A stretch of DNA of 64,000 nucleotides from Ochromonas danica (lineage: Eukaryota; Sar; Chrysophyceae; Chromulinales; Chromulinaceae): the NCBI GenBank assembly GCA_015146655.1, contig VKHL01000057.1:69840-133839 (forward strand), in the 5' to 3' direction. Below are positions 2,160 through 37,945 of the stretch, in pieces. Both the position numbers and the translations under genes were made by a program. Numbering within the stretch: the first letter of the stretch is position 1; every line of letters starts with the position of its first letter. The notes under the pieces were generated by a model. It saw only the letters and a program-made list of their open reading frames with translations. It did not search any database and was not told the DNA's origin.

Positions 2160-4966
2160 ATGGATGAAAGCTCTTTTCAAAGACTTTTTGATAATGCACA
2201 ACGAAACCCACAGGGAGAGTTCAAATTCTCTGAAGCAGAGGCTCGACGATTTAAAGAAGCCTTTGCTGATCCTGAATTTCGTAAAATGTTTGCACAATAT
2301 ATTGATGAGATGCAAGATCCTAAAAATCGAGAAGAGACTGAAGCTTATATAAGTCAACTAGAAGGAGAACAAAAAGTTCCAGAAGGCAAAGAGTTGATCA
2401 GGTTAGTCTCTTTCTCTCCTAGTCTCCATCTCTGTCTGCACGCTGTGTGCTCTAGCCCTCTTGTTCAACTCTTCTTAACTCTCTCTTGTATGGTTTTGCT
2501 TGTAGACCTCGACCAGGATTTGTGGCGAAAACACATAAAATTATTAAAAGTGGGGCAAGCAATGAAAAGGTTTTTCTGAACATCGTTCAAAGTGAGAAAG
2601 TTGCTTTACCATCAAAGACAAAGGCATCCAAGGGTGATTGTTGGTCTATTCCTTACACTGTGGGACCACCTCATATGGAGAAGGACAAGAAAGGCGAAAA
2701 TGCGAGCTGCTTCGACGTCTGCTTTCATCCTGAAGCACTTGAATTAAGTGAAGATCATCAAGATTTCAGAGATCTTTTAGTTACAACAGCTATGGATGGT
2801 GTGGAAGAAATGTGTAAAAGGCAAAGAGTGGAAGTCCAATTGGAGCGAAAGTTTCATATTGTGAAAGGTATTAAATACAAGGAGGGACAAGTGCTGACAA
2901 TGATGATTGCTTCACAGCACAAAGAAAGCTGGAAAAATTCTTCTCCGTCAGGTTCTTCTTCGAACATTTCCCCTTCAGCTGAGTCTTCTACTACAGTATC
3001 AAGTGGAAAGAAGAGTTCCACCGTTGATTCATCGGCTGCTGGCGTTGATGATCAACCAAAGAGTGACAAGACTTCTTCTATTAATGCCACCTCGAAAGGA
3101 AACGGTAGTGAAGCTGCAAGTCCTGTGAAACCTACTACTCCTAAAAAGCCTGCGAGTACAGGTCTTCGCAGGGGTTTCTTAAATTCTCCCAAAGCGTCTC
3201 TTTATCCGGAGAAAATTCCTACTATTCGTCCCTCTGGAAGTGGAGGCTATTCTTCTGCTTCTCCTTCCAGTCCTATTCCTCAACAGCCTATTGGCGCTGT
3301 AGTTGATAATGAGTCAAACAAAGTCAGCACAGCTGCAGTAGCATCCATGCTAAATACCAACACATCTTCTGCGAGTGGGAATCAGAAAGAGACAGCTGTG
3401 TCTGACGCTGACCTTAAAGCAGTCTCCTCGAAGAAGATAACCCGCTCTTCGCAGTCACCAACACAGCAGTCCTCTGATGTATCTCCTTCACCTCAATCTG
3501 ATGGGCCTGTCAAGCCTTTAGTGGTTTGTAAGCATCGAGAAGATGTGAGTTTGGGCGATCTCGATGGTATAAAGTCCCAACAAGTCCATTCATCTCGTCC
3601 CAATGAGTTGGTTTATGAGATCCAGCTCCCTCTTGTTAGTAGTGCAAACAACATTGCCTTAGATCTTTCCGAATCAAAACTAGTTCTGACTTATGAGAAG
3701 ATTTACCACCTCGATCTCAAGCTACCTTATCGTGTCGTGGATCAAAAGGCGAAAGCCGCTTTTGACAAGATCAAGAAGACATTGACTGTTCGTTTACCAC
3801 TTGTGAAGGATGATGCTGTCAGTACCATAACCCCTCCAGTGCGAGAAACCTCCAGCATCGAAGAGATAGATCAAAGCGTGCCAGCTGCTGATGTGACAAC
3901 CAATGATGATAACAAAACTGCGAGAAAGCAGCCATCCAAAGATCACAGTCGATGGGTTGAAAGTGGAAAACAAACGGGTGATGGGGACAAAAATAACGAC
4001 AACAGTCTTTCTGAAGAGGTCCAAAGACAAGCCGCAGCTGCAAAGGAGCGAGCGAAGGAGATCGTAAAGGGTAAAAGTGCATCTTCAAAGCCTCGATCAG
4101 CTGTCGGTACTTCCTCCTCTGAAGATTTCGGTAGTGGATTGGATTTTATGCCTTTTGCTGAGTTCTCTGGTTTTCGATCTGGTTTTGTGTATAAGCGTGG
4201 TGATCAGGGCTTAGGCTATTATCGTGACCATGGCAAAGCAGCGCCTGCTCCAGTGACATCTCCCATTGATCATAGTGTCGAAGTGGAAGATGGTGGATTA
4301 GTTACAATGCCATTCCCCCCTGAAGGAATAGAACTTCATGCCATCCCGTATGAAGCAAGGGAATCTCCGAAGACATTGGCTATACTACTGCAAATCCCTT
4401 GCGTAGTGGCTGATTCTCTGTTGATTGATATCACTGGTCCTCATACGATAGAGGTACGGTGTATTGCCTTAGCTGGACAAGGACAGGGCCCTCAAAATGG
4501 AAGTAATTGTGCTGTTATGAACAGCAACGGTGTCGCCAAGATCTATTATGGTCAAGGATTTGATCTCGATCCAGATTGTTGTCCTGGCGGAATCGATGCT
4601 AAATCGTTGCGCTTTGATGTCGCAGGAAAGAATACGGCTATCGTGATATACAAAGTCCTTCCGAATGAGGTGTGGAAGACGACTGAATCCACTTGGCTTC
4701 GAAAAAGGGAATATCGCGGAAGTTTGACCATGAAGGCATCTGCCGCCGCCGTCACTGATAATTCTGTTGGCAGTGTTCCGGACTCTTCTGCATCCTCTCG
4801 ACAAGCGTCTTCTACACCCTCCAGCAAAGAGTCTACAAAGCAGACAAATACAGAAGGATCTGGGGAAGAAGCTGAACCTGTAAGTAGTTCACATGCAATC
4901 GAAGCTGCAGCAATGGCAATGTCCTCGATGCGATTCCACACGGATCTGTTTTCTGAACTTGACTGA
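2160..4966 (+). CDS. Kintoun/DNAAF2-like PIH1-domain dynein assembly factor
   Basis: Two exons, 2160-2401 and 2506-4966, encode about 900 residues; the 104-bp intron has gttagt and ttgtag ends and restores the Arg of the motif RPRPGFV. The PIH1 domain spans about residues 75-205 and begins with RPRPGFVAKT. A long Ser/Thr/Pro-rich linker follows. A CS/p23-like domain lies near residues 445-510 (NELVYEIQLPLV, then ALDLSESKLVLTY). The C-terminal third holds a further conserved-looking region and an Ala/Ser-rich tail. PIH1 plus PIH-type CS domain in a protein of this length matches Kintoun (DNAAF2), an HSP90 co-factor that pre-assembles axonemal dynein arms in the cytoplasm. This implies motile flagella. 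A different PIH1 paralogue (PIH1D3 or PIH1D1) is less likely because those are much shorter. Confidence 0.85.
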
Positions 4967-21002: not shown

Positions 21003-21150
21003 GAGAGTAGGATAGGATAGAATAGGATACAATAAGATATAATATAATAGGATAGGATATAGAATAAGATAGAATATAATAGGATAGAATAGGATAGAAT
21101 AGGATAGAATAGGATAGAATAGGATAGGATAGGATGGGACAGGATGGGAA
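21003..21150. repeat. ggata/gaata pentamer tandem repeat
   Basis: A microsatellite of imperfect pentamers, including four exact 10-bp units aggatagaat at 21081-21120. It sits immediately upstream of the start codon of the tail-anchored protein gene and would be in its 5' UTR or promoter. Confidence 0.85.
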
Positions 21151-21462: not shown

Positions 21463-24241
21463 CTAAGGCACTCCACTCACAACATACTTCAGACCATCGC
21501 AATGCTGATTGTAAGTCTGATAAAACACATCAATAGAAAATGGCTTCGATATAAAAGCATCTACTCCTGCAGCAAAGGCTTCATTCATCGTATCAGTGTC
21601 AGAATTGGCAGAGATACCGATGATAAATTGATGAATCTTTGATGCATTGAACACAGGTAAACTTCTCTCCAAACCTGGAGCTGTAGCATCGTCACTTCCA
21701 CTCCACGAAAAGCTCGAAAGCAAGAGCAAACGATGTGTGAAACTTAGCTCTGAAACAACATGAGAGTGGTGGTTAGTATTCCTTTGAGCCAGCATATTCT
21801 CACAGAACAACCGCTCAGCCTCTCGAATCCTGCGAGTTGCTTCCAACCCATCCATCACTGGCATCTGCAAATCCATCAACACAACATCGTAAGCTGGAAA
21901 CCCTTCCTCGACCTCATTGTAAGCTCTCGTCACCAAGCTCAAACCACTCACTCCATTGTCTGCTTGATCCACATTATGGCCATGGCGACGCAACATCATG
22001 CTCATCATCTTCTGGATAGAAGGAGCATCGTCCACAATGAGAATAGTCAATGGATCGCTCTCTTGAGATCTGAAACGACGTTCTGGCCGTCTCCAAGGCT
22101 CCACTTCATTGGAAGAGGAATCATGTATGCCCTTCGAAGTGCGTGATACGGTGTTAGCAAACTCGTTCTTTGAATGAATAGAATTGTCATTTTCCACACG
22201 TACACTGAAGAAATTAAGGGGAGCGCGGGAAGTTATGGCATGTTCTAATGTTGCTGTTGCTGCTTCTGCAAATACAGCGTCTGGACGATAAGGAATCGCG
22301 AACCAAAATACTGACCCTTGAACTCCATCTAGACGCTTCCTCACCCCATACGACCCTCCCAATGCCTCCACGCGACGAGCTAAGGAAAATAATCCCAAAC
22401 CCGTCCCTCCTGCCAGCTTCTGAGCTTGCTTGAAAGCATTGAACAACGTCGCCATTCCTTCCTCCGTCAGACCTATTCCTGTATCCTCGATCTCCACCAA
22501 CAGAAACAACTCGCCTGAACTCGATATATTCGCAATTAAAGGCTGTTCTGCCAGATCACGGGGACTTGTGATGGGCAAGCTGTTCTCATCCACTCGACTT
22601 ACCGTCGAAGTACTTCGATTAGAACTTGCCGACAAAGCGGAAACTGTAGGGATTCGACGATTCCGACGAATCATGTCAGATGCGGAGTGGGCCCTATTCT
22701 CGCCCTTAACACGGGGGGCTATACCTGACGCCACAGATGCTTTTGCACTCTCATCGCTGTCCCGACAGGATGACTGCATAAGACCGCCTGGCAACTGACA
22801 GACACTTCCTGGACCGATCTCTCCCACTCGCTTCAAAGACACACGACCATTCACATTACCTCCCGCTGAATACTTCACCGCATTGCTCAACAAACACAGA
22901 ATATTCTCCTGCAACCATTGCTTGTCCGTTATCACATGACTGCAGATGTCCTTGCTCAGTTCCTCCAGATGAACATGCACCTTCTGAGACACATCCTTCA
23001 TACACTTGAAAGGAAGCGACAACGTCTCCATCAACTCGATCGTCTCATACTTTGGAACCAGCTTCAGACCTTTGCTGGCTTTCGTGTAGTCGATGCAACG
23101 ATTGATCGTCATCATCATGAAGTTGTTCACATTGTGACTGTTCTGCACTGAACACAGCACACCTTCCAACCAACCTCGCACTTCCTTCGCCAGATGCTTG
23201 TAGTGACTCCCATCGTACAGCGCCATCTCTTCCGAGCAACAGTTATCAATGGAAGAAAGCTTGCGCAACCCATCCTGAGCGATGTCAGCGACCATATCCA
23301 AACCGCTCACGAATGAAGCAAGAGGCTAAAGACAATCGAACGAAAGTCATTGACAAAACCACACATCAGACACATCACCATATCAGCAAGCAACAGATAA
23401 AGTCAGGATTCACACTCACCGTCTTCAAGTCATGAGCCACATTCCCGATCATGTGCCGCAGCTCATTGGCTCTCAGCTCTTCTGTCATTTCTTCATTCTG
23501 TTTGATGACAGCCGCGAGCTGCTGTTGGATGACAAAGCTGCGGACATTTTGCAATTGATTGGAGTATATTGCAGATGCGGTGCAAACTGGAATAACAAAG
23601 GCTATACCTAAGTTAGTCATATTCATGGGTTGATATTGGATCACGCAGTAAGGTATTGTGACTGTTGCAATCAGCCAGTTTAGCACAATGGCATTCCAGT
23701 CTGTGTCTCGCATGATGATGGCGAACATTATGGGTGTCCAAACGACAGACAATAAGCTACCCTCGGGAAGTCCTTTGGTCGAATGGTTAGGATTGCAAAA
23801 CGCTTGCTCAGAAATAGAATTTCCTTTACACTCTCCATAGGCCATTCTAGCACACAGTTGTACTGCCAGTGACAAAGTGAGGAGATTGGAATAGAGATTC
23901 TGAACCATGCTACCTATGTAGCGCTTGGTTGCTGTCATTGTTTTCGGGCAGTGCTTTTCACAGTAGCGAAAATATAAAGTTAACCAACATAATATAATGA
24001 CAGGAATATTGAGAGCACCGGTCACTTTCACAAGCACTATTTGGCTTGTCTTCTTGTCTTCATCAAATGTGTAAGCCAACGAACCCACCGTCGGAAATGC
24101 ATACAAGGTCGTCAGCAGAGATAAAACAGCTAACGCGCTTAATGGAAGCTCACGAGAATTGAATTCACGGAAAGGTGCTGTTAGATGCCCAGGCAATCGT
24201 ACCACCCCTGAGATAGAGACATCACTTGGTTGAGGTTTCAT
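21463..24241 (-). CDS. Hybrid histidine kinase HHK-A (6-TM sensor, HisKA, HATPase, receiver)
   Basis: Two exons, 24241-23420 and 23325-21463, with a 94-bp intron, encode about 894 residues. Exon 1 is a six-helix membrane sensor opening FREFNSRELPLS, with a Cys pair in YGECK and CNPN and the motif MRDTDW. A helical linker (IYSNQLQNVRSFVIQQQ) leads to the H-box NVAHDLKT; the phospho-acceptor is His270. The intron falls directly between DLKT and PLASF. Exon 2 holds the N-box (LCLLSNAVKYS), G1 (EDTGIGL), F-box, G2 (GGTGLGLFSLARR) and a receiver (ILIVDDAPS, MDLQMPVMDG, ISANS, SKPF). The receiver carries an insert of about 60 residues of the type shared with HHK-D. This copy is the most diverged in its intron. 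Confidence 0.92.
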
Positions 24242-24290
24242 TCTATCAACTAATCACCTTCTTGCATAAATATGTCACTCATTCAACAAG
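24242..24290 (-). promoter_or_regulatory. 5' leader shared by HHK-A and HHK-B
   Basis: The 49 bases upstream of the HHK-A start codon are nearly identical to 27988-28036 upstream of HHK-B, and homology ends abruptly after caacaag. This marks one edge of the duplicated unit and preserves the proximal leader and perhaps part of the promoter. Confidence 0.7.
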
Positions 24291-25064
24291 TGCCTAGCAT
24301 GGAATATTTCTATTTTGATGTCATCTGATAACTGATCCTCTATTTCATCGTCACCTTCTCTGTTCTGCCTTGTGCCACTCCATCAAGTCAAATTCGAAAA
24401 TCAGAAAGTCACAAAAGCAGCCTCAGAACTCACAATTCCGGCATTCAAGATCCGGACGAAGGCATGTTGATTGTAATCATTTGATTGCCCCTTTAGTATG
24501 CTCATATTCCATAGAGTAAGGCAATGTACCCTCAACCAATGCCAAGAAATGAAAGCCTGGTACTTTCGTCTTGGCTCATTCAACTAGCGAAAGCCCATAA
24601 TTCTATAGCAAAAGCGTTTTCTTGTGTATCTTGGCATGTACTTCGGGAGAGTATGCAGTTCTGCCCAAATTATCTTGCAACGGCGCAAATAATGACAACA
24701 GCGATTGCTTAGAATTGCACAATGGCAATAACTTCCACTGTCACAATGCTTTATGAATACAGAGCATAATACCACGTAACTTAAACTTTATATCATTTAA
24801 ATATCTCTAATGCTAATAAAACAATAACGTATTATAATCGCAACAACACATAACATCACAACGAAGCGACATGTAATACTCACCATCATTCTTAACAAAA
24901 TAACCAATCTAAAATTCAATACCAAGAAAACAAGAAAAGAATAAACACAAATAAAACAACAACCACTCAGAATATCACAAATAACTACTTTGCTGCTACC
25001 ATCGTTCGTTGTACTTCAAATAACAGTAGACATGTAAACAAAATTAACAGAACGGGAAAAGGAT
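24291..25064. other. Intergenic gap between HHK-A and HHK-B
   Basis: This AT-rich stretch lies upstream of HHK-A and downstream of HHK-B. No coding frame has motifs and no repeat of note is visible. It should contain the HHK-A promoter. Confidence 0.6.
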
Positions 25065-27987
25065 TTAGGAAACTCTACTCCCAACATACTTTAAACCATT
25101 GCAATGCTGGTTGTAAGTCTGATAAAACACATCAATCGAGAATGGCTTCGATATAAAAGCATCTACCCCTGCAGCGAAGGCTTCATTCATCGTATCAGTA
25201 TCAGAGTTGGCAGAGACACCGATGATAAATTGATGGATTTCCCGCATCATAGTTGGATGAACACGTCGTACATCAAAGCTAGCGCTTTGCTCATTTAAAT
25301 GCACCGACATAGTACGAGCATGGGAGACGACTGGAAAATTAGAATCCAGACCTACACTGTCACTTCGACCACGGGCGCTATTGGTGTGGATGCTGTGACT
25401 GTGACCTAAACTACTCAGAGGTGGCGCATCTAACACCTGGCCTATCTTTTCCATCAAATTAGTCACAAACGTCTTCCTGTTCCCAACACGAATAGAAGAG
25501 CTATTCTTATCCTGACCACCAGATGATGAACAACCCGACAATACTAACTCAGACATCGCCTTTGCAAACTTCTGTTCAGCCTCTCGAATCCTGCGAGTTG
25601 CTTCCAACCCATCCATCACTGGCATCTGCAAATCCATCAACACCACATCATAAGCTGGAAACCCTTCCTGAATCTCATTGTGTGTGCTCGTCACCAAGCT
25701 CAAACCACTCGCCCCATTGTCTGCTTGATCCACATCATGGCCATGGCGACGCAACATCATGCTCATCATCTTCTGGATAGAAGGAGCGTCGTCCACAATG
25801 AGAATAGTCAATGGATCGCTCTCTTGAGATCTGAAATGAGGTTCTGGCCGTCTCCAAGGTTCTACTTCACAGAGAGAGGAAGAATGCACGCTCTTCGAGG
25901 TGGGCGAGTTGGAGGAAAAATAACTCTTCCTCTTTCGAGAGGTTCTACATCCTACATGCGGTGAACCTGTTTTCTTTATGGGCGGGGCGTAGGAGGGTGT
26001 GGTGTGCTCTAATGTTGTTGTTGCCCCTGCTGCTTCTGCAAATACAGCGTCTGGACGATAAGGAATCGTGAACCAAAATACTGACCCTTGAACTCCATCT
26101 AGACGCTTCCTCACCCCATACGACCCTCCCAATGCCTCCACGCGACGAGCTAAGGAAAATAATCCCAACCCCGTCCCTCCTGCCAGCTTCTGAGCTTGCT
26201 TGAAAGCATTGAACAACGTCGCCATCCCTTCCTCCGTCAGACCTATTCCTGTGTCCTCGATCTCCACCAGCAGAAATAAATCACCTGAAGTTATAAGATT
26301 GTCACTCCTCTTTGGGAACTCTATCGGTCTTTTTTGTTCGTTCTCATCCGATGCAGAATTATAATCAAGACTATGAACAGCACGATTTGTTGATGGCACA
26401 GATGATGGATGAACAAACCTGGTTGGCGAAGACATAACGCAACCATCCTCCTCAAACGCATAAAGACTCGGTCTCTCACAAACCGGAAAATCACTCAAGC
26501 TCAACACAGATCTGGTCACGAGTCCCACTGGCAACTGACAGACACTTCCTGGACCGATCTCTCCTACTCGCTTTAATGACACACGACCATTCACATTACC
26601 CCCAGCTGAATACTTCACCGCATTGCTCAACAAACACAGAATATTCTCCTGCAACCATTGCTTGTCCGTTATCACATGACTGCAGATGTCCTTGCTCAGT
26701 TCCTCCAGATGAACATGCACCTTCTGAGACACATCCTTCATACACTTGAAAGGAAGCGACAACGTCTCCATCAACTCGATCGTCTCATACTTTGGAACCA
26801 GCTTCAGACCTTTGCTGGCTTTCGTGTAGTCGATGCAACGATTGATCGTCATCATCATGAAGTTGTTCACGTTCCGACTGTTCTGCACTGAACACAACAC
26901 ACCTTCCAACCAACCTCGCACTTCCTTCGCCAGATGCTTGTAGTGACTCCCATCGTACAGCGCCATCTCTTCCGAGCAACAGTTATCGACTGAAGAAAGC
27001 TTGCGCAACCCATCCTGAGCGATGTCAGCGACCATGTCCAAACCGCTCACGAATGAAGCAAGAGGCTAAGCACAATCAAATGAAAGTTTCATACAAAGAC
27101 AAAGAAACACATTAGACACATCACCCTATCAGCAATCAACAAACAACACCAGGAATCACACTCACCGTCTTCAAGTCGTGAGCCACATTCCCGATCATGT
27201 GCCGCAGCTCATTGGCTCTCAGCTCTTCTGCCATCTCTTCATTCTGTTTGATGACAGCAGCGAGCTGTTGTTGGATGACAAAGCTGCGGACATTTTGCAA
27301 TTGATTAGAGTATATTGCAATTCCACTGTAAATTGGAATAATAAAGGCCACGCCTACGGTGGTTGGTGTTAGTTGTTGGCAATCGATCACACAGAATATT
27401 ACGGCGATTGTAGCAATCAGCCAGTGCAGAATAACTGCAATCCAATCTGTGTCTCGCAATATCATAGGGAACATTATGGGTGACCATACGACAACCACCA
27501 ATGTATCTTCCGGAAGACCATGAGTCGAATGATTAGGATTGCAAAATGCTTGCTCTAAAATAGAATTTCCATTGCACTCTCCATATGCCATTCTAGCACA
27601 CAGTCGAACTGCTAGTGACAATATGAGGACAATGGAATAGAGATTCTGAACCATGCTACCCATGTAACGCTTGGCTGCGGTCATTCTTTTAGGACTGTGC
27701 TTCTCATAGTAGCGAAAATATAAAGTTAGCCAACTTAACATGATAACAAGAATGTTTAGAGCACCAGTCACTTTCACAAGCGCTATTTGGGTTCTGCTCT
27801 TGTCTTCATCAAATGAGAAAGCAAACGAACCCACCGTCGGAATGGCATACATGGTCGTGAGCAGAGATAAAATAGCCAAAGCGCCTAATGGAAGCTCTTG
27901 AGAATTGAATTCACGGAAAGGTGCTGTTAGATGCCCAGGCAATCGTACCACCCCTGAGATAGAGACATCACTTGGTTGAGGTTTCAT
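25065..27987 (-). CDS. Hybrid histidine kinase HHK-B
   Basis: Exons 27987-27166 and 27065-25065, with a 100-bp intron, encode about 940 residues. The sensor exon is closely related to that of HHK-A (FREFNSQELPLG, YGECN, CNPN, LRDTDW); the H-box His is residue 270. The kinase core matches the other copies. Two modules do not. The linker before the G1 box is unique to this copy (RSVLSLSDFPVCERPSL), whereas A, C and D share another. The receiver insert is the long type shared with HHK-C (VLSGCSSSGGQDKNSSSIR) and makes the receiver unusually large. The intron is almost identical to those of C and D, not to that of its neighbour A. Confidence 0.92.
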
Positions 27988-28036
27988 TCTATCAACTAAT
28001 CACCTTCTTGCATAAATATGTCACTCATTCAACAAG
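27988..28036 (-). promoter_or_regulatory. 5' leader shared by HHK-B and HHK-A
   Basis: Near-identical to 24242-24290; beyond 28036 the two upstream regions are unrelated. Confidence 0.7.
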
Positions 28037-29002
28037 TTTCAAATTACAGCTATCTTATTTCGAGGTCAAGGAAATCGGCATTGGTGGTGACGGAACGGAA
28101 CAACTCCCATGATGGAAACGGAGTGTTGGTGGAGAGCGCACAGCACACCGCCCTGCGGAGGACATGTCAACAAGTATCGTCTACAAGCAGTATTTAATTG
28201 CAACCAAAATAGACTTCGACTTTGTAGAAAAGTTTCTGCAAAGTTTCATTGGGAACAAAAAGGCAATCAAAGAAGCCTTTACTAACAAGCATTTGCATCA
28301 AAATTTAAAGGGTGACTGGAAAGCTACGAGAATGAAGGTTAAGTGAATGCGGAACTCACGCAGAGACTATCCGAGATTGGCCCTCTCATTTTGGTCCAGT
28401 GGCTAAAGAGCCAGCCGTCTGCCGTCTGTCTGCCCGTGTCGATGCAAGTGGATGGAACAATCAGGCAGACCCGTCGGCAAACTGCCACTTGGCTGCCTTG
28501 AAGGCACTCCTAAAGGCTGACCTGTGGGCTGACCGCTCCACAAGGCTGAATTGCGTGAAGCCGTGGTGTGAAATTGAGGCCGACAAGTTGGTCCATAACG
28601 TTATTATTGAAGAAGGGATTGTAGAATTAGAAATGGCGAAAAGAAACAGCGTGAAGCCGAAGAAGAACAGCGTTTTGCAAGAAGACTTGAAAAAGGCTGA
28701 AGTTTTCAGCTTCAACGAAGCAGTGTAGCCTGTCCGCGCCAAGAGCGCGCGATTAGTGGACAGAAAGAGAGCTGCAACAGGAAATTGTACGTAAAACGAT
28801 ACAAAGAGGGGATTACCACTGAGCTAACCAGGCTCGTGCACCTCTCTCGCAGAGACGTATATCATACGTCCATGATCTTTCGTCACAATAGCGAAGGATG
28901 CTCCCATTGTTTAAGAAGTCTATGAGGTTATTCTCTTCATGGCCAGTCTAAAATCAGCCATACGCTGCTTCGCCGCGCAGCAAGATATTAACACGAATTT
29001 TA

Positions 29003-29085
29003 GCGGCTTAAAATGAAACAACCAAGAGTTGAGGCTACCTTCCATAATTAATTATTTATGGAGGGTTGCCTGCATTTTAAGCCGC
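29003..29085. repeat. Two-part inverted repeat (hairpin)
   Basis: The outer arms gcggcttaaaatg (29003-29015) and cattttaagccgc (29073-29085) are perfect complements. Inner arms at 29033-29047 and 29056-29070 pair with two mismatches around an 8-nt loop. The two stems are separated by 17 nt on the left and 2 nt on the right. Confidence 0.8.
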
Positions 29086-29221
29086 CGAGATTCTTGAGCT
29101 AGATGATAACAACATTTAAAATATTTGGCACTTTATACCAACCGTAGCTTTCCATGCGTCAAAATTATAACTATACTCTGCTGGTCGGTGTTAACTTAAG
29201 ACACATTTTTGGTAAATCGTT

Positions 29222-29384
29222 GAAGGTATTTCCAATGTTCTTTCCATTTCATCTCGTAAAGCAAACCTGCCTTATGAAATGCCTCACAAAGCACTTTATT
29301 GCGTGGATTGAGATGTTTTGTACAAGTCCATGGCTTCTGACAAATCGTGAAATGTGCTGTGTAGACTTCTTCAGGATCTGATGG
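29222..29384 (-). pseudogene. Fragment of a GT8-like glycosyltransferase gene
   Basis: On the minus strand this stretch is roughly 97 percent identical to 47475-47636, near the 3' end of the intact glycosyltransferase gene in this window. It encodes the region around TICQKPWTC. It carries a one-base deletion, has no start, and homology stops sharply at both ends. The intact gene has no introns, so a cDNA origin and a genomic duplication cannot be told apart. Confidence 0.85.
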
Positions 29385-29690
29385 AGTATGAACGGCTAAG
29401 ATCTTAAGTTAACGCCCTAGTGACAAAAGACACAATAGATTTTGCTTGTTTTAATGCTCCATACTTTATGAAAAAACGGAATAAGCGATTATTTGGTGTT
29501 TTCATTCCATTAATTTGCTAGCTATTGTAGTTAGGTTTGCTATTGTTCATTGTTATAGAAGTATTTTGCTATTTTCAAACACCACTAGAAAGTGAAAGAA
29601 TAGCAAGGGCATCATATGAGAAAAGAAAATAGAAAGAAACATCACCAGAAAGAAGAAACAAATTTTGTCATCTTGTGATAGAGCTAGTTA

Positions 29691-30063
29691 CTAACACTGG
29701 AGAGAACAAATCTGTGCATAAAAAAGAACGTCCAAAAGATGTATTGCATGAAGAAGTTCAATTCTCTTGCACATTCTTTGACCAGTCGAACTGGCCTTCA
29801 TGAAGGGATCGTCTGGAAACTTGAATTCTCCTTCTTTTGTTCCCACCAGCGGTATCAACTGGGCCGCTTGCTCCGGAGACAGCTCGACAGCTTTTGGACT
29901 GGATACGTTTTGGCCTCCTTTGCCATCATGCATAAACTTAATAAAGGCAAACTTGTTGCCTTTCTATATTTCCGTTGCCTTCATATTATAGGCGATTTTC
30001 ATGGCAAAGGTAAAGAGGTTGTTGCGAAGGAATGTGAGGAACCATCCAAACAAGAGCAATCAG
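29691..30063 (-). pseudogene. Decayed coding frame of unknown family
   Basis: One minus-strand frame reads as coherent protein over about 110 codons (FLTFLRNNLFTFAMKIAYN, later SPEQAAQLIPLVGTKEGEF) but is interrupted once and has no credible start. I do not recognise the family. Confidence 0.35.
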
Positions 30064-30399
30064 CATCCACAGGTCGATGCTTGCGACATTAATCGACAGT
30101 AAATCCAATTTTTAAACTACACAAACTTTTGTGTGTGGAATGACATCACCGTTCTTACAATATTTGAAAATTATCTTTCGACCACCTTGTGGGGTTCGTC
30201 GAAGAAGTGAACGTTTTACGAAAAACGGGTCTTAACAATTAAAGTTGAAGTTCTCCCACCTCACAACCCAAAGGGAAGCGCTTCGTTTCCAGCAGTCCGA
30301 GATGCCTTGTTACCGACCCCTGCTCGATTTCAGATTTGGTTTCCATTAGTCTAATCATTATAGATATTTCCAACTATTATTTATGTTTCTCTTTTTATT

Positions 30400-33292
30400 A
30401 TGAATCCACCTCTAGCAATCAAACGAAAACCATCGGAAAGTGCATTCAAAATGCTTTTACAACCTCCCAAACATATGACCCAGTCTTTTCGGGCATTTCA
30501 CTCGAGAGAATTACCTCTTGAACCTCTGACCGCAATTATTCTTTTCCTTACTATGTATTCTATATTTTCGTTTGGATCACTTTTTGGAGACAATCATGCC
30601 CCTCCAAGTAAATCCCGAGTGATAACTTGTGGCAAGATTGTTATTTTTGGCTTGAGTATTGTCATTGCTGTCTTGGGCTGGGCAACAGTATTCTACAAAT
30701 ATAACTCCAAACGTAGATTAAATTTGATGACTCTTGGAAATTGGAGAAGATACGGTCATTATTTCCAAAACATCTTTTTTGTACTCATGGTTGTTGTTTT
30801 AGGACTTCGATTTCTTGTCCGGATCTATTACGGGGCTTGCCAAACCGATTCATTCAGTGAATTTCTTTATTGTAACCACAATGCGAAACAAGAGGGCTTT
30901 CCTGAGGATAGCTTGATTACCCTGGCTTTCACGCCTGTTATTTATCCAATATTACTGCGGGATACTGATTGGACTGTTGTTCTGATCACCTGGATAATAA
31001 GTATTATATTCTTGTTCATTGGTGCAGCGATTAATTATCGACACAATCCTCTGATGTTTCTACTGATAGGAGTAATTGCATTATACACGGGTGTGGCAAT
31101 ATACTCTAATCAATTACAGAATGTCCGCAGCTTTGTCATCCAACAACAGCTCGCGGCTGTCATCAAACAGAATGAAGAAATGGCAGAAGAGCTGAGAGCC
31201 AACGAGCTGCGGCACATGATCGGGAATGTGGCTCACGACTTGAAGACGGTGAGTGTGATTCCTGGCGTTGTTTGTTGATTGCTGATAGGGTGATGTGTCT
31301 AATGTGTTTCTTTGTCTTTGTATGAAACTTTCATTTGATTGTGCTTAGCCTCTTGCTTCATTCGTGAGCGGTTTGGACATGGTCGCTGACATCGCTCAGG
31401 ATGGGTTGCGCAAGCTTTCTTCCATCGATAACTTCAGTTCTGAAGAGATGGTGTTGTATGACGGAAGTCACTACAAGCATCTGGCGAAGGAAGTGCGAGG
31501 TTGGTTGGAAGGTGTGTTGTGTTCAGTGCAGAACAGTCGGAACGTGAACAACTTCATGATGATGACGATCAATCGTTGCATCGACTACACGAAAGCCAGC
31601 AAAGGTCTGAAGCTGGTTCCAAAGTATGAGACGATCGAGTTGATGGAGACGTTGTCGCTTCCTTTCAAGTGTATGAAGGATGTGTCTCAGAAGGTGCATG
31701 TTCATCTGGAGGAACTGAGCAAGGACATCTGCAGTCATGTGATAACGGACAAGCAATGGTTGCAGGAGAATATTCTGTGTTTGTTGAGCAATGCGGTGAA
31801 GTATTCAGCTGGGGGTAATGTGAATGGTCGTGTGTCATTAAAGCAAGTTGGAGAGATCGGTCCAGGAAGTGTCTGTCAGTTGCCAGGCGGTCTTATGCAG
31901 TCGTCCTGTCGAGATAGCGATGGAAGTGCAAAGGCATCTGTGGCACCCCGTGTTGAAGGCGAGAATAGAGGTAACTCCACATCTGATATGATTCGCCGCA
32001 ATCGTCGAACCACTGCAGTTTCCGCATTGGCAGCAGGTTCGAATCGAAGTACTTCGACTGTAAGTCGAGTGGATGAGAACAGCTTGCACCTCACAAGTCC
32101 TCGAGATCTGGCAGAACAGCCGTCAATAGCGAACATGTCTAGTTCAGGCGATTTATTTCTGCTGGTGGAGATCGAGGACACAGGAATAGGTCTGACGGAG
32201 GAGGGGATGGCGACGTTGTTCAATGCTTTCAAGCAAGCTCAGAAGCTGGCAGGAGGGACGGGGTTGGGATTATTTTCCTTAGCTCGTCGCGTGGAGGCAT
32301 TGGGAGGGTCGTATGGGGTGAGGAAGCGTCTAGATGGAGTTCAAGGGTCAGTATTTTGGTTCACGATTCCTTATCGTCCAGATACTGTGACTGCATCGTT
32401 AACTGAAGTAGCATCAGAGAATGAAAGTTCTAATCGGGTGGTATCGTTTGTGAGGAAAATAAGTTCTTCTTCTTTCCGAAATTCTCGGAAGAGGATTAAT
32501 TCTTCTTCTTCCACCAAATCGCCCACTTCGAAGGCCGTGCATTCTTCCTCTCTTTGTTTCAGATCCCGAGAGAGCGATCCATTGACTATTCTCATTGTGG
32601 ACGACGCTCCTTCTATCCAGAAGATGATGAGCATGATGTTACGTCGCCATGGCCATCATGTGGATCAAGCAGACAATGGGGCGAGCGGTTTGAGCTTGGT
32701 GACGAGCACACACAATGAGGTTCAGGAAGGGTTTCCAGCTTATGATGTGGTGTTGATGGATTTGCAGATGCCAGTGATGGATGGGTTGGAAGCAACTCGC
32801 AGGATTCGAGAGGCTGAACAGAAGTTTGCAAAGGCGATGTCTGAGTTAGTATTGTCGGGTTGTTCATCATCTGGTGGTCAGGATAAGAATAGCTCTTCTA
32901 TTCGTGTTGGGAACAGGAAGAAGATATTTGTTACTAATTTGATGGAAAAGATAGGTCAGGTGTTGGATGCGCCAACTCTGAGTAGTTTAAGTCATAGTCA
33001 TAGTGGTCGTGAAAAGAGTGGTCGTGAGTGCAGCCTAAGAACTGTTTCCTCACCTGTCACTGAGATTAATGGCGTTGTTAGGACTAATTCGTTTCATAAA
33101 CGCCCTTCTTCAGTGCCGGAAATCCATCAATTTATCATCGGTGTCTCTGCCAACTCTGATACTGATACGATGAATGAAGCCTTTGCTGCAGGGGTGGATG
33201 CTTTTATATCGAAGCCATTCTCGATTGATGTGTTTTATCAGACTTACAATCAGCATTGTAGAGGGCCTAAGTTTCGTCTTGTAGCGAAGTAA
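30400..33292 (+). CDS. Hybrid histidine kinase HHK-C
   Basis: Exons 30400-31248 and 31349-33292, with a 100-bp intron, encode about 930 residues. The sensor is a different six-helix version but keeps the family marks FRAFHSRELPLE, YGACQ, CNHN, GFPED and LRDTDW. The H-box NVAHDLKT places the phospho-acceptor at His279, with the intron right after it. The kinase core and the linker before G1 match HHK-D almost exactly, apart from a 4-residue gap (KASVAPRV against KASVASGIAPRV). The kinase-receiver linker and the large receiver insert instead resemble HHK-B (SPTSKAVHSSSLC; VLSGCSSSGGQDKNSSSIR). All catalytic residues of the kinase and receiver are present, so it looks functional. Confidence 0.92.
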
Positions 33293-35232
33293 AAGCTTGT
33301 AGCTATTTCTCTATTATTTTGCCAATATTTGTTATAAGGTATTCCTTTTCCTGATTTGGTTTACGTTTCTTTAATGATAATTATATGATGTAATACTAAT
33401 ATATGGCAGTACTGTTTGTATTATCAGCGTACTAATTTTCACTTTTAGGCTTTCGAGCGCTTGTCTGTTCCGCCTGGATAATTTTCGGTTCCCCCAGCAA
33501 TGATTGATTATTAACCATTAGCAACATCCGGACATGCATTGTTGGTATATTTTGATTTGTGTATCATCGCCACCGACTTCATCTATATCCTGCGTAAGAA
33601 CCATGAAGTGTTGACAGTACATTGTGGGTGCTTAACACTTCATTGTCGATGTGGTCCATATCAGGTATCAAATCTAGAAATCCATGGAAATGCTCTCAAT
33701 CTCCACACGTCCGCAAAGCTCCAACTTCCGCAAAACCCCAACCAAACTCCATAAATTAAACATCAACATAGTTTTGCTCTTTTGGTCTCTTTCTTCATGT
33801 ACATCAAAACACTTGCCAATGAAATGACAGAAGTCGATAATGGTAAGTTTAGGTCTCACTTGGTGGTGATTGGGCCACTAATTGTTCTCTTTTTATTCGC
33901 GTTTTGCAGGGTCTGAGTTGCTCGACAGGGTCACCAGATTCGGTGACTATTCTGCCCTGGCACACTGCGGACAACAACAAAAGAATAATGGAAGTTTTCT
34001 ATGAGTCCAAAAAACAATTTTGTAGTTTTATAACGACCACAATTTACGTACTGACACTCTGAAAGACTGGAAGGTGAAGTACGGCCGGTGGAAGGCCACA
34101 GGAGGGGACGACTTTCATGAAAAAGCAGTTGGCCCTCATAATGGACAAGATAAAGCCCAGCCACCAGGAAACCGACAATGACCACTAACTTTTGACATAG
34201 CAATGGGAAAATACACATCAGTACTGCATCAGGAGCTCATCCAGACCGATACTGGATATATATGAACACAGGTACCGAAATTGGCGGAGCTATTTCGGTC
34301 TAATGGGCAGGTCACGGAGAAAGGCCTGGATAGCATCAACATTGTCAGCGCAGATAAAGTCACCAAAGCCACGGACGAGCAAAGCCTTCACCAACAGCAA
34401 GCTGTGCTGCTGAATAAAGAAGATACTGCAGCACGATTCAAGCTCCACAAGACGAAGAAGGTGCTGGAAGCAGCGGCCAAAGCGGCGGTCGAGCAGCAAA
34501 GAGAGACAGCGAGGCAAACTCGACAAGCACCGAACCGCCAAAAGCAGGTCTACCAGCAGTGGCATAAAGGCCTGATCAAAGCTGAACAGAAGGCAAAGTT
34601 GGGGAGTAGTAAAGCTGCCCAGCGGACCAGCAATTTGTCATCTGAACAAGCACTATTGCTCTCCGATAAAAATGAGCTCATCTTTGCTTCTCAATGTACC
34701 TTTAAAAGAAAAATAGACACTGCAGGCATCATTTCCACAAAATGCGACACATAATATGGCATTCTCGGTGGAACGAGTTGGCCTTTGACTTCATTCTTCA
34801 AAGACTTCAGCTCTGGAAGTGGGCATACGCCGTATGACAGGTCTTGCACAATTTTGGTCAATAAATCATCAACCACAACAAAACATCCCCACATATGCTA
34901 TATCATTCGAAAGCTCAGAACATTTCGATTGAAGGACCGGGCGAAAATGGCTCCAAACTGACGACATTGGCTTTTAAAGTGAATTTTGTTTGTCAGCAAA
35001 GTCGCTAAAAACCCGTTGGAGGGTTGGGGTTTTGCGGAAGTCCGGAAGTCGGGGCTTTTCACGCATGGACGCGCAAGTTCCGCTGCTTGCTGTCGGACAA
35101 GTATTTGTAACAAGAAAGGAAATTAAATTTACTATACTGCATGTGATCAAATTATTGAGTTTTGGAGAGCTAACGAAGTAATCAATATTAGAAAGATTTA
35201 GGTTGATTGTGTTTGATTGTTGTTAACAAAAA
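33293..35232. other. Intergenic gap between HHK-C and HHK-D with an inverted-repeat element
   Basis: A 1.3-kb segment bounded by a perfect 20-nt inverted repeat (33724-33743 and 35022-35041) fills most of this gap and is listed separately. The flanks have no coding frame with motifs. The HHK-D promoter must lie at the right-hand end. Confidence 0.5.
33724..35041. mobile_element. Possible relict DNA transposon bounded by inverted repeats
   Basis: The ends carry acttccgcaaaaccccaacc at 33724-33743 and its exact reverse complement at 35022-35041. Weaker complementarity extends outward (caaagctcc on the left, ggggctttt on the right). Inside, a plus-strand frame at about 34263-34754 encodes a Gln/Lys/Ala-rich helical protein fragment (LAELFRSNGQVTEKGL). 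That could be the tail of a transposase or a disordered host protein. No DDE motif is visible and target-site duplications are not obvious. Confidence 0.4.
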
Positions 35233-37945
35233 ATGCTTTTCAACGAAGAAATGTTACAATTTCCACGACGACGGAATGAATCATCCAAAGAAATGCTTCG
35301 ATCTCATCTTCGATTACCAAATCACCTTTCTATTTTATTTCGAGAGTTCCATTCTAAAGAGTTGCCTTTTGAAGCAATGGCCATACTCTTGTTTATAATT
35401 ACAATCTTCGCAATAGTGACGATGGCAGCAATGTTTTCCGGCCAACTTGGTCGCGATCGACCGCGTGGTGCTTTGATCAAATTATCATTGGTGTTGGGCT
35501 TCCCCATGTTAATATCTGGTTGGATAGCTCTCTACTTGAAGTTTTTAGCCAAATATCGTCCACTGAAATGTGGACCGCAAGTTGTATATTGGGCATCATT
35601 CATGCAGGGGATATTTGCCATTGCCATGGTAATTTTCTGTGGTATGCGACTCTATGCGAAGACCAAATACGGCCCGTGCGTAACTAACTCTGTTCGCGAG
35701 ATTATGTATTGCAATCCCAATGCTGCTTCTGGTGGATTGCCAGAGGACAACCTTGTTGCCCTGATTCTTATACCAATTCTCTTCCCTATCCTCCTTAGAG
35801 ATACAGACTTCAATGTTGTCATCATGACATGGCTTATGGCAATAATTTTCTTATCAATAAGCATTATTCATGTGGGAATAAATTCCGGCAAAGCGGCAAT
35901 TATAATTTCCTATTTCATCATTAGTGGCATCGGAATATATTCCAATCAATTGCAAAATGTCCGCAGCTTTGTCATCCAACAACAGCTCGCTGCTGTCATC
36001 AAACAGAATGAAGAGATGGCAGAAGAGCTGAGAGCCAATGAGCTGCGGCACATGATCGGGAATGTGGCTCACGACTTGAAGACGGTGAGTGTGATTCCTG
36101 GTGTTGTTTGTTGATTGCTGATAGGGTGATGTGTCTAATGTGTTTCTTTGTCTTTGTATGAAACTTTCATTTGATTGTGCTTAGCCTCTTGCTTCATTCG
36201 TGAGCGGTTTGGACATGGTCGCTGACATCGCTCAGGATGGGTTGCGCAAGCTTTCTTCCATCGATAACTTCAGTTCTGAAGAGATGGTGTTGTATGACGG
36301 AAGTCACTACAAGCATCTGGCGAAGGAAGTGCGAGGTTGGTTGGAAGGTGTGTTGTGTTCAGTGCAGAACAGTCACAATGTGAACAACTTCATGATGATG
36401 ACGATCAATCGTTGCATCGACTACACGAAAGCCAGCAAAGGTCTGAAGCTGGTTCCAAAGTATGAGACGATCGAGTTGATGGAGACGTTGTCGCTTCCTT
36501 TCAAGTGTATGAAGGATGTGTCTCAGAAGGTGCATGTTCATCTGGAGGAACTGAGCAAGGACATCTGCAGTCATGTGATAACGGACAAGCAATGGTTGCA
36601 GGAGAATATTCTGTGTTTGTTGAGCAATGCGGTGAAGTATTCAGCTGGGGGTAATGTGAATGGTCGTGTGTCATTAAAGCAAGTTGGAGAGATCGGTCCA
36701 GGAAGTGTCTGTCAGTTGCCAGGCGGTCTTATGCAGTCGTCCTGTCGAGATAGCGATGGAAGTGCAAAGGCATCTGTGGCGTCAGGAATTGCACCCCGTG
36801 TTGAAGGCGAGAATAGAGGTAACTCCACATCTGATATGATTCGCCGCAATCGTCGAACCACTGCAGTTTCCGCATTGGCAGCAGGTTCGAATCGAAGTAC
36901 TTCGACTGTAAGTCGAGTGGATGAGAACAGCTTGCACCTCACAAGTCCTCGAGATCTGGCAGAACAGCCGTCAATAGCGAACATGTCTAGTTCAGGCGAT
37001 TTATTTCTGCTGGTGGAGATCGAGGACACAGGAATAGGTCTGACGGAGGAGGGGATGGCGACGTTGTTCAATGCTTTCAAGCAAGCTCAGAAGCTGGCAG
37101 GAGGGACGGGGTTGGGATTATTTTCCTTAGCTCGTCGCGTGGAGGCATTGGGAGGGTCGTATGGGGTGAGGAAGCGCCTAGATGGAGTTCAAGGATCAGT
37201 ATTTTGGTTCACGATTCCTTATCGTCCAGATACTGTGACTGCATCGTTAACTGAGTTAGTGGAAGAAAGGGTAATTGAGTTGAAGTCGAGTTCTACTGAT
37301 AATCCTGTTGATTCAATGGTGGTTTCTGACCTATCATGTGATCGATTAACTATTCCTTCGAAAATTTCTAACGACAGGAGAAAGATGCGTATCCTAATTG
37401 TGGACGACGCTCCTTCTATCCAGAAGATGATGAGCATGATGTTACGTCGCCATGGCCATCATGTGGATCAAGCAGACAATGGGGCGAGTGGTTTGAGCTT
37501 GGTGACGAGCACACACAATGAGGCTCAGGAAGGGTTTCCAGCTTATGATGTAGTGTTGATGGATTTGCAGATGCCAGTGATGGATGGGTTGGAAGCAACT
37601 CGCAGGATTCGAGAGGCTGAGCGGTTGTTCTGTGAGGGTATGCTGGCGCAAAGGAAGATTAACCTCCATTCTCATGTTGTTTCAGAGCTAAGTTCTAAAC
37701 ATCGTTTGCGCTTGCTTCCGCGCTTTTCATCTAGTGGAAGTGACAAAGCTACTGTTCCAACGTTGGAGAGTTGTATGCCTGCGTTCAATGCCTCAAAGAT
37801 TCATCAATTTATCATCGGTGTCTCTGCCAATTCTGATACTGATACGATGAATGAAGCCTTTGCTGCAGGGGTGGATGCTTTTATATCGAAGCCATTTTCT
37901 ATTGATGTGTTTTATCAGACTTATTATCAACACGCCGATAGTTGA
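35233..37945 (+). CDS. Hybrid histidine kinase HHK-D
   Basis: Exons 35233-36084 and 36185-37945, with a 100-bp intron almost identical to those of HHK-B and HHK-C, encode about 870 residues. The sensor is again distinct (FREFHSKELPFE, YGPCV, CNPN, LPEDN, LRDTDF), with six helices and a helical linker into the H-box (His280). HisKA, HATPase and receiver motifs are all intact (EDTGIGL, GGTGLGLFSL, ILIVDDAPS, MDLQMPVMDG, SKPF). The kinase-receiver linker is unique to this copy (DSMVVSDLSCDRLTIPS). The receiver insert is the short type otherwise found only in HHK-A (MLAQRKINLHSHVVSELS), the most distant gene in the cluster. Confidence 0.92.

What the first reader, a model, noticed from the sequence alone, without database searches (positions are those of the whole stretch)
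21463..37945. Four hybrid histidine kinases in a 2+2 divergent cluster with mosaic modules
The kinase cores are nearly identical, but each module groups the copies differently. The sensor pairs A with B and separates C and D. The start of the dimerisation helix pairs A+B against C+D (CCSEEMALYDG against FSSEEMVLYDG). A nearby segment pairs A+D against B+C (SHNVNN against SRNVNN). The linker before G1 unites A, C and D and excludes B. The receiver insert pairs A+D and B+C. No single tree explains this. Repeated gene conversion or unequal exchange across an inverted cluster would, giving a combinatorial sensor-kinase family that keeps one core and swaps inputs and linkers.
Basis: partly seen in the sequence, partly recalled or inferred. 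Interest (0 to 1): 0.8.

Follow-up and report, generated by a model that had tools for sequence, protein, structure and literature searches.

The report
Patchwork sensor kinases with shared core
An alga's genome carries a cluster of four sensor proteins whose signalling engines appear to have been copied over one another while their sensing parts stayed different, which may show how a cell keeps many detectors wired to the same output.

Summary
The window is from a ~31 Mb photosynthetic eukaryote. Each gene is longer than read: exon 1 (membrane sensor, coil, H box) plus exon 2, split by a 94-100 nt intron inside the H box. From coil to stop, two-two sites split 52 AB|CD, 62 AD|BC, 7 AC|BD, strongly clustered (P<=5e-5). 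Sensor, linker and receiver-insert trees reject one another. Silent and intron sites point to gene conversion: C and D have saturated sensors but dS 0.01-0.10 in DHp-N box, G boxes and first half of the receiver; introns of B, C, D are 99-100% identical.

Relatives on other contigs (C11, C114, C5) carry the sensor, linker and insert types of A, B and C; the catalytic core is what was overwritten. The insert grouping needs an older exchange. Among 37 gene models, 24 of 26 pairs with recently similar cores have higher silent divergence in the sensor (19 significantly, one pair significantly opposite; 15 of the 26 are the window's own subfamily). Nearest precedent: protocadherin clusters.

The parts
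23420..24241 (-). gene A exon 1: N-terminus, membrane sensor, coil, H box
23326..23419 (-). gene A intron, 94 nt, GT-AG, phase 0, inside the H box
21463..23325 (-). gene A exon 2: rest of DHp, HATPase with ~100-aa insert before G1, HK-REC linker, receiver with short insert
27166..27987 (-). gene B exon 1
27066..27165 (-). gene B intron, 100 nt; 100/100 identical to D, 99/100 to C
25065..27065 (-). gene B exon 2; the odd linker type before G1 (shared with C114) and the long receiver insert
30400..31248 (+). gene C exon 1
31249..31348 (+). gene C intron, 100 nt
31349..33292 (+). gene C exon 2; linker before G1 shared with D, long receiver insert shared with B
35233..36084 (+). gene D exon 1; sensor without a close off-cluster partner (other matches at most 38% identity)
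36085..36184 (+). gene D intron, 100 nt
36185..37945 (+). gene D exon 2; short receiver insert shared with A
36040..37176 (+). C-D shared tract in D (gene positions 808-1944; exact matches of 62, 272, 401 and 386 nt)
   Evidence: runs test
35944..36258 (+). B-D shared tract in D (315 nt exact, from the start of the coil through the intron into exon 2)
   Evidence: runs test
36270..36301 (+). short A-B against C-D block (10 consecutive two-two sites, the CCSEEMALYDG segment), as placed in D
32721..32921 (+). B-C shared tract in C: end of the first half of the receiver plus start of the long insert (201 nt exact)
25472..25672 (-). B-C shared tract in B, counterpart of the above

Best explanation
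These are four membrane hybrid histidine kinases, with catalytic residues in place, from old duplications. Non-allelic gene conversion repeatedly overwrites the stretches where the copies still match (coil, H box and intron, DHp to N box, G boxes, first half of the receiver). The sensor, much of the loops, and the receiver insert have diverged and mostly escape. Shown: the mosaic, its statistical support, silent-site and intron homogenisation, lineage-linked variable modules, and recurrence in other groups of the genome. Inferred: that conversion is the mechanism of transfer, that loss of homology stops the tracts, and that the result is useful because many inputs then talk to one phosphotransfer partner.
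For: Two-two site runs P<=5e-5. AU tests on 7 genes: the sensor tree is rejected by 5 of 7 other segments, the linker tree by 6 of 7 and the insert tree by 6 of 7, at P<0.05. Runs test: C-D 162 polymorphic sites identical in a row, B-C 38, B-D 27, and A-B 10 inside the core, global P 0.0005 each. C-D dS 0.014 in DHp-N box while the sensor is saturated; partner pairs in that segment 0.21-0.61. Introns B/C/D 99-100% against 68-78% to C11, C114, C5. Control: A-C11, a lineage pair, has similar sensor and core pS (0.256, 0.210, P 0.38), so sensors do not simply mutate faster at silent sites. 619 of 666 model pairs have core pS >=0.6, so silent core sites are free to change. Same design on C20 (sensor pS 0.80, core 0.03) and between C143 and C78 on different contigs (exact islands of 325, 219 and 287 nt between highly diverged linkers). 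Core GC3 excess over sensor is larger in the 19 models with a recent partner than in the other 18 (0.16, 0.04, P 4.5e-4).
Against: The C146 pair is opposite (core 0.148, sensor 0.076, P 0.04) and C141/C132 shows no difference; three C53 pairs are not significant. C-D dS in the coil is 0.27, not low. The G boxes of the C143/C192/C78 genes have GC3 of 0.07, against a simple GC-bias reading. Off-cluster genes are not clean references: A shares a significant fragment with C114, the first receiver half puts A with C114 (bootstrap value 99), A's linker is closer to C and D than to C11, and B-C114 and C-C5 are not uniform along the gene. D has no partner, so its combination has no independent check. 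The runs test does not fully separate conversion from rate differences between segments. One strain; no reads.
Confidence: 0.85

Rival explanations
1. Combinatorial shuffling of inputs and linkers: a shared core gene acquires different sensors, linkers and inserts by recombination.
For: Insert type crosses sensor type (A,D short; B,C long), and segment trees conflict. Some module exchange is therefore needed.
Against: C11, C114 and C5 keep the sensor+linker+insert types of A, B and C, and downstream flanks (150/300 nt) go with them: A-C11 68/63%, B-C114 72/72%, C-C5 59/53%, the other 18 pairs 46-55%. Upstream flanks do not discriminate. The core is what departs from lineage.
Confidence: 0.12
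2. Assembly artefact: near-identical cores made the assembler join the wrong sensors and tails.
For: Cores are near-identical over about 1 kb, the kind of repeat that causes chimeric joins; no reads were available.
Against: The A, B and C sets are reproduced by copies on three other contigs; copies carry private changes (singletons from gene position 700 on: A 72, B 127, C 18, D 44); a like pattern recurs on C20 and other contigs. D remains unchecked.
Confidence: 0.05
3. Selection alone: the catalytic core is highly constrained, down to nucleotides, while sensors evolve fast.
For: Core dN is low; the coil protein is conserved even where silent sites are saturated (C5).
Against: Silent sites are more alike within the cluster than to lineage partners, and B, C and D share an almost identical intron; 619 of 666 model pairs have core pS of 0.6 or more; groupings conflict inside the core.
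Confidence: 0.03
4. Exon shuffling through the H-box intron joins one kinase exon to different sensor exons.
For: All 37 gene models have an intron at that place (the model finder required it, so this is not an independent count).
Against: The switch from unrelated to identical lies inside exon 1, 140 nt before the intron in B-D, and the intron itself is part of the shared tract.
Confidence: 0.03

Closest known systems
Regional gene conversion in clustered protocadherin genes (fugu, PMC1852091; passages seen)
   Same: Clustered receptor-type paralogues with one part homogenised at nucleotide level (there >99% identity) and another part kept diverse; raised third-position GC in the homogenised part.
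   Different: Here a hybrid histidine kinase family in an alga; several separated islands per gene with diverged linkers between them; inverted neighbours and genes on different contigs take part; an intron is included in the tract.
Fungal multistep phosphorelay with one HPt protein (Ypd1; PMC3846623, passage seen)
   Same: Hybrid kinase to HPt to response regulator; one HPt family match found here too.
   Different: The passage describes yeast with a single hybrid kinase; here up to about 78 kinase-core loci. No conversion is mentioned in the passages seen.
Bacterial two-component paralogues that diverge at specificity residues to stay insulated (recalled, from no call)
   Same: Duplicated histidine kinases under constraint from partner recognition.
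   Different: Here conversion keeps the partner-facing domains alike, the opposite outcome.

Membership tests
Hybrid histidine kinase | HATPase_c domain with N, G1, G2 boxes | tested here: met
   Pfam HATPase_c 1.4e-12 to 2.2e-12 in all four; motifs in all four
Hybrid histidine kinase | HisKA/DHp with phospho-accepting histidine | tested here: inconclusive
   HDLKTP present in all four once spliced, but Pfam HisKA on spliced D is 16.4 bits, under its 26.9 cut-off, positions 2-29 of 66 (only D was tested spliced)
Hybrid histidine kinase | C-terminal receiver domain with DD, D and K | tested here: met
   Response_reg 5e-21 to 4.2e-20; residues in all four
Hybrid histidine kinase | Phosphotransfer activity | not testable with these tools
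   needs biochemistry
Regional concerted evolution by gene conversion | Paralogues more alike at silent and non-coding sites within the cluster than to their lineage partners, in part of the gene only | tested here: met
   (A's intron is the exception: 77-78% to B, C, D)
Regional concerted evolution by gene conversion | Significant shared fragments and conflicting segment trees | tested here: met
Regional concerted evolution by gene conversion | Raised GC at third positions in converted parts | tested here: inconclusive
   0.50-0.60 in islands against 0.28-0.44 elsewhere in A-D; larger excess in genes with recent partners, P 4.5e-4; but G boxes of C143/C192/C78 are at 0.07
Regional concerted evolution by gene conversion | Paralogues alike within a species against orthologues of another species | not tested
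   no related genome is held
Known membrane sensor domain | Match to a Pfam family or a solved fold | tested here: not met
   no Pfam family over its cut-off in 4 of 4 exon-1 proteins; no PDB fold at E<=0.001 from a model of C exon 1 with mean pLDDT 75

The most novel reading that the evidence does not exclude
The genome maintains a common signalling chassis by conversion: many different membrane sensors, including ones on different contigs, have their kinase and receiver surfaces repeatedly reset to a shared sequence in several short islands, so that they stay matched to what may be a single HPt protein. That is the reverse of the insulation described for bacterial paralogues (recalled).
Probability: 0.3. 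Interest if true: 0.75.

Novelty: new variant of a known kind. Interest (0 to 1): 0.55.

Why it matters
It gives, within one genome, receptor paralogues at what look like different stages of escaping gene conversion, with the islands still exchanged. It makes testable whether conversion keeps a large sensor array tied to one output, and it warns that trees of such kinases built from the core will give wrong relationships.

Tried and rejected
Exon shuffling at the intron, selection alone and misassembly were considered and are placed among the rivals. Positive selection on sensors: dN/dS in the A-B, A-C11, B-C114 and C-C5 sensors is 0.17-0.41 and in 7 of the 8 pairs it is 0.45-0.90 (the C20 pair is saturated), so no excess over 1; the loops range from about 0.2 to above 1. 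Sensor identity by Pfam and by fold search gave nothing usable. The exon-2 model was useless (mean pLDDT 34). The Rfam gathering scan of the window found nothing. Organism naming: the light-harvesting protein matches, among others, fucoxanthin- and violaxanthin-type chlorophyll proteins, suggesting an ochrophyte-type alga, but it was not named; the small-subunit rRNA search failed twice. Pfam Hanta_Gn-H on C exon 2 (5.1e-5, under its cut-off) is taken as chance. Ten paper searches listed nothing that I recognised as gene conversion among histidine kinases; they cover open-licence PMC only, and I saw listings only, except passages of two papers.
Full report
Setting. The window is part of contig C57 of a 31.2 Mb, 337-contig genome. 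Introns and 47 light-harvesting matches, fragments included, mark a photosynthetic eukaryote; the protein resembles, among others, fucoxanthin- and violaxanthin-type antenna proteins.

What the genes are. Each of the four kinase ORFs is preceded by an ORF ending at the H box. A 94-100 nt GT-AG intron lies between them, and splicing gives HDLKT|PLASF and proteins of 894 (A), 940 (B), 930 (C) and 870 aa (D) with no stop inside. There is no transcript evidence. Architecture: a membrane part with six long helices in the model of C exon 1 (mean pLDDT 75; no membrane-helix predictor was run), coil, DHp, HATPase with a ~100-aa loop before G1, variable linker, receiver with a variable insert between its two halves. 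Catalytic residues are present in all four. Pfam HisKA stays under its cut-off on the spliced D protein, so the DHp is an unusual one. A pattern-based finder that required this intron gave 37 gene models: 4 in the window and 33 from 29 of the 40 stretches fetched; 11 stretches gave none. A core search gave 79 matches, two of them adjoining pieces on C230, so up to about 78 loci, some weak or fragmentary. One HPt match was found (six-frame, so possibly incomplete).

The mosaic is real. Sliding identity shows sensors C and D near random against each other and against A/B, near-identical coil-to-N-box DNA, a linker shared by A, C, D, and receiver inserts shared by A,D and by B,C. From the coil on, two-two sites are 52 AB|CD, 62 AD|BC, 7 AC|BD in 32 runs against 67.5 expected (P<=5e-5). 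With C11, C114 and C5 added, segment trees conflict: the sensor tree is rejected by coil-DHp, linker, RECn, insert and REC-C data (AU P 0.037 or less), not by G boxes (0.20) or the HK-REC linker (0.105); the insert tree is rejected by all segments but REC-C. The runs test places shared tracts in C-D, B-D, B-C and A-B with global P 0.0005, some inside the core itself.

It is conversion rather than constraint. In DHp-N box dS is 0.014 for C-D, 0.088-0.17 for the other cluster pairs, and 0.21 (B-C114), 0.27 (A-C11), 0.61 (C-C5) for the lineage partners, while C-D, A-C, A-D, B-C and B-D sensors are silent-site saturated. The coil is less even: dS 0.07 for B-D but 0.27 for C-D. B, C and D introns are 99-100% identical, A's is 77-78% to them, and pairs involving C11, C114 or C5 (without C225) are 67-78%. 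A-C11, a lineage pair, has about the same silent divergence in sensor and core. Among all 666 model pairs 619 have core pS of 0.6 or more, so silent sites of the core are not held fixed.

Direction. C11 matches A, C114 matches B and C5 matches C in sensor, linker type and insert type; downstream flanks agree for A-C11 and B-C114, weakly for C-C5. Upstream flanks do not decide: A-B 56/55%, A-C11 40/58%, B-C114 58/52% over 150/300 nt, and A and B are alike just before their start codons. Most flanks inside the cluster are at the level of shuffled sequence, about 52%. So the variable modules mark descent and the core is the part overwritten. C5's coil is saturated at silent sites against A, B, C and D although its sensor is nearest to C's, which fits replacement of C's coil by a cluster copy. 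Off-cluster genes are not wholly outside the exchange: A shares a significant fragment with C114 and the first receiver half groups them. The receiver insert crosses sensor lineages, so an older exchange is needed there; its dS among A, D and C11 is 0.16-0.21.

Elsewhere in the genome. Of 26 pairs with core pS under 0.30, sensors have the higher silent divergence in 24 (19 with Fisher P<0.05); 15 of the 26 pairs belong to the window's own subfamily, so they are not independent. By group: the window family, C33, C174, C20 and C143/C192/C78 show it; C53 shows a non-significant trend in 3 of 3 pairs; C141/C132 no difference; C146 the opposite (P 0.04). The inverted pair on C20 repeats the window's design: sensor, both linkers and receiver insert highly diverged, exact identity over 458 nt from the end of the intron to the N-box region, and over 286 nt of the receiver. 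C143 and C78, different contigs, share exact islands of 325, 219 and 287 nt between highly diverged linkers. In the youngest pairs (C33, C174) the edge of the identical part lies inside the sensor, so module edges look like places where homology has run out rather than fixed breakpoints (inference). Core GC3 excess is higher in the 19 models with recent partners than in the other 18, but the G boxes of the C143 group, at 0.07, go against a simple GC-bias account.

Likely working. Each protein should read a signal through its membrane part, phosphorylate its DHp histidine, pass phosphate to its receiver and on to an HPt (established scheme for hybrid kinases; inference here). Homogenised DHp and receiver surfaces across members with different sensors would give many inputs with one output; the single HPt match fits but does not prove this.

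Known parallels. Regional conversion in protocadherin clusters is the nearest precedent found (PMC1852091, passages). I recognised no paper on conversion among histidine kinases in the listings of ten library searches, which is a limited search.

Changes after checking.

Noticed in passing
G000 contigs, e.g. L028 (C174), L015 (C33), L030 (C53): Other near-identical tandem or inverted kinase pairs; the C174 pair shares 2080 nt exactly.
   Followed up: partly
G000:C224:8673-16382: Four equally scoring light-harvesting matches spaced about 2.4 kb apart in tandem, possibly another homogenised array.
   Followed up: no
G000:C62:40222-40398: The only HPt family match found in the genome (40.4 bits), against up to about 78 kinase-core loci.
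   Followed up: partly
window 21008-21149: Degenerate TAGGA/TAGAATAGGA tandem array near the 3' end of gene A.
   Followed up: no
L019/L020 (C146): Pair with sensors closer than cores at silent sites, the reverse of the rule.
   Followed up: partly
window 2486-4966: ORF with PIH1 and PIH1_CS domains, a family tied to dynein assembly (recalled), hinting at a flagellate stage.
   Followed up: no
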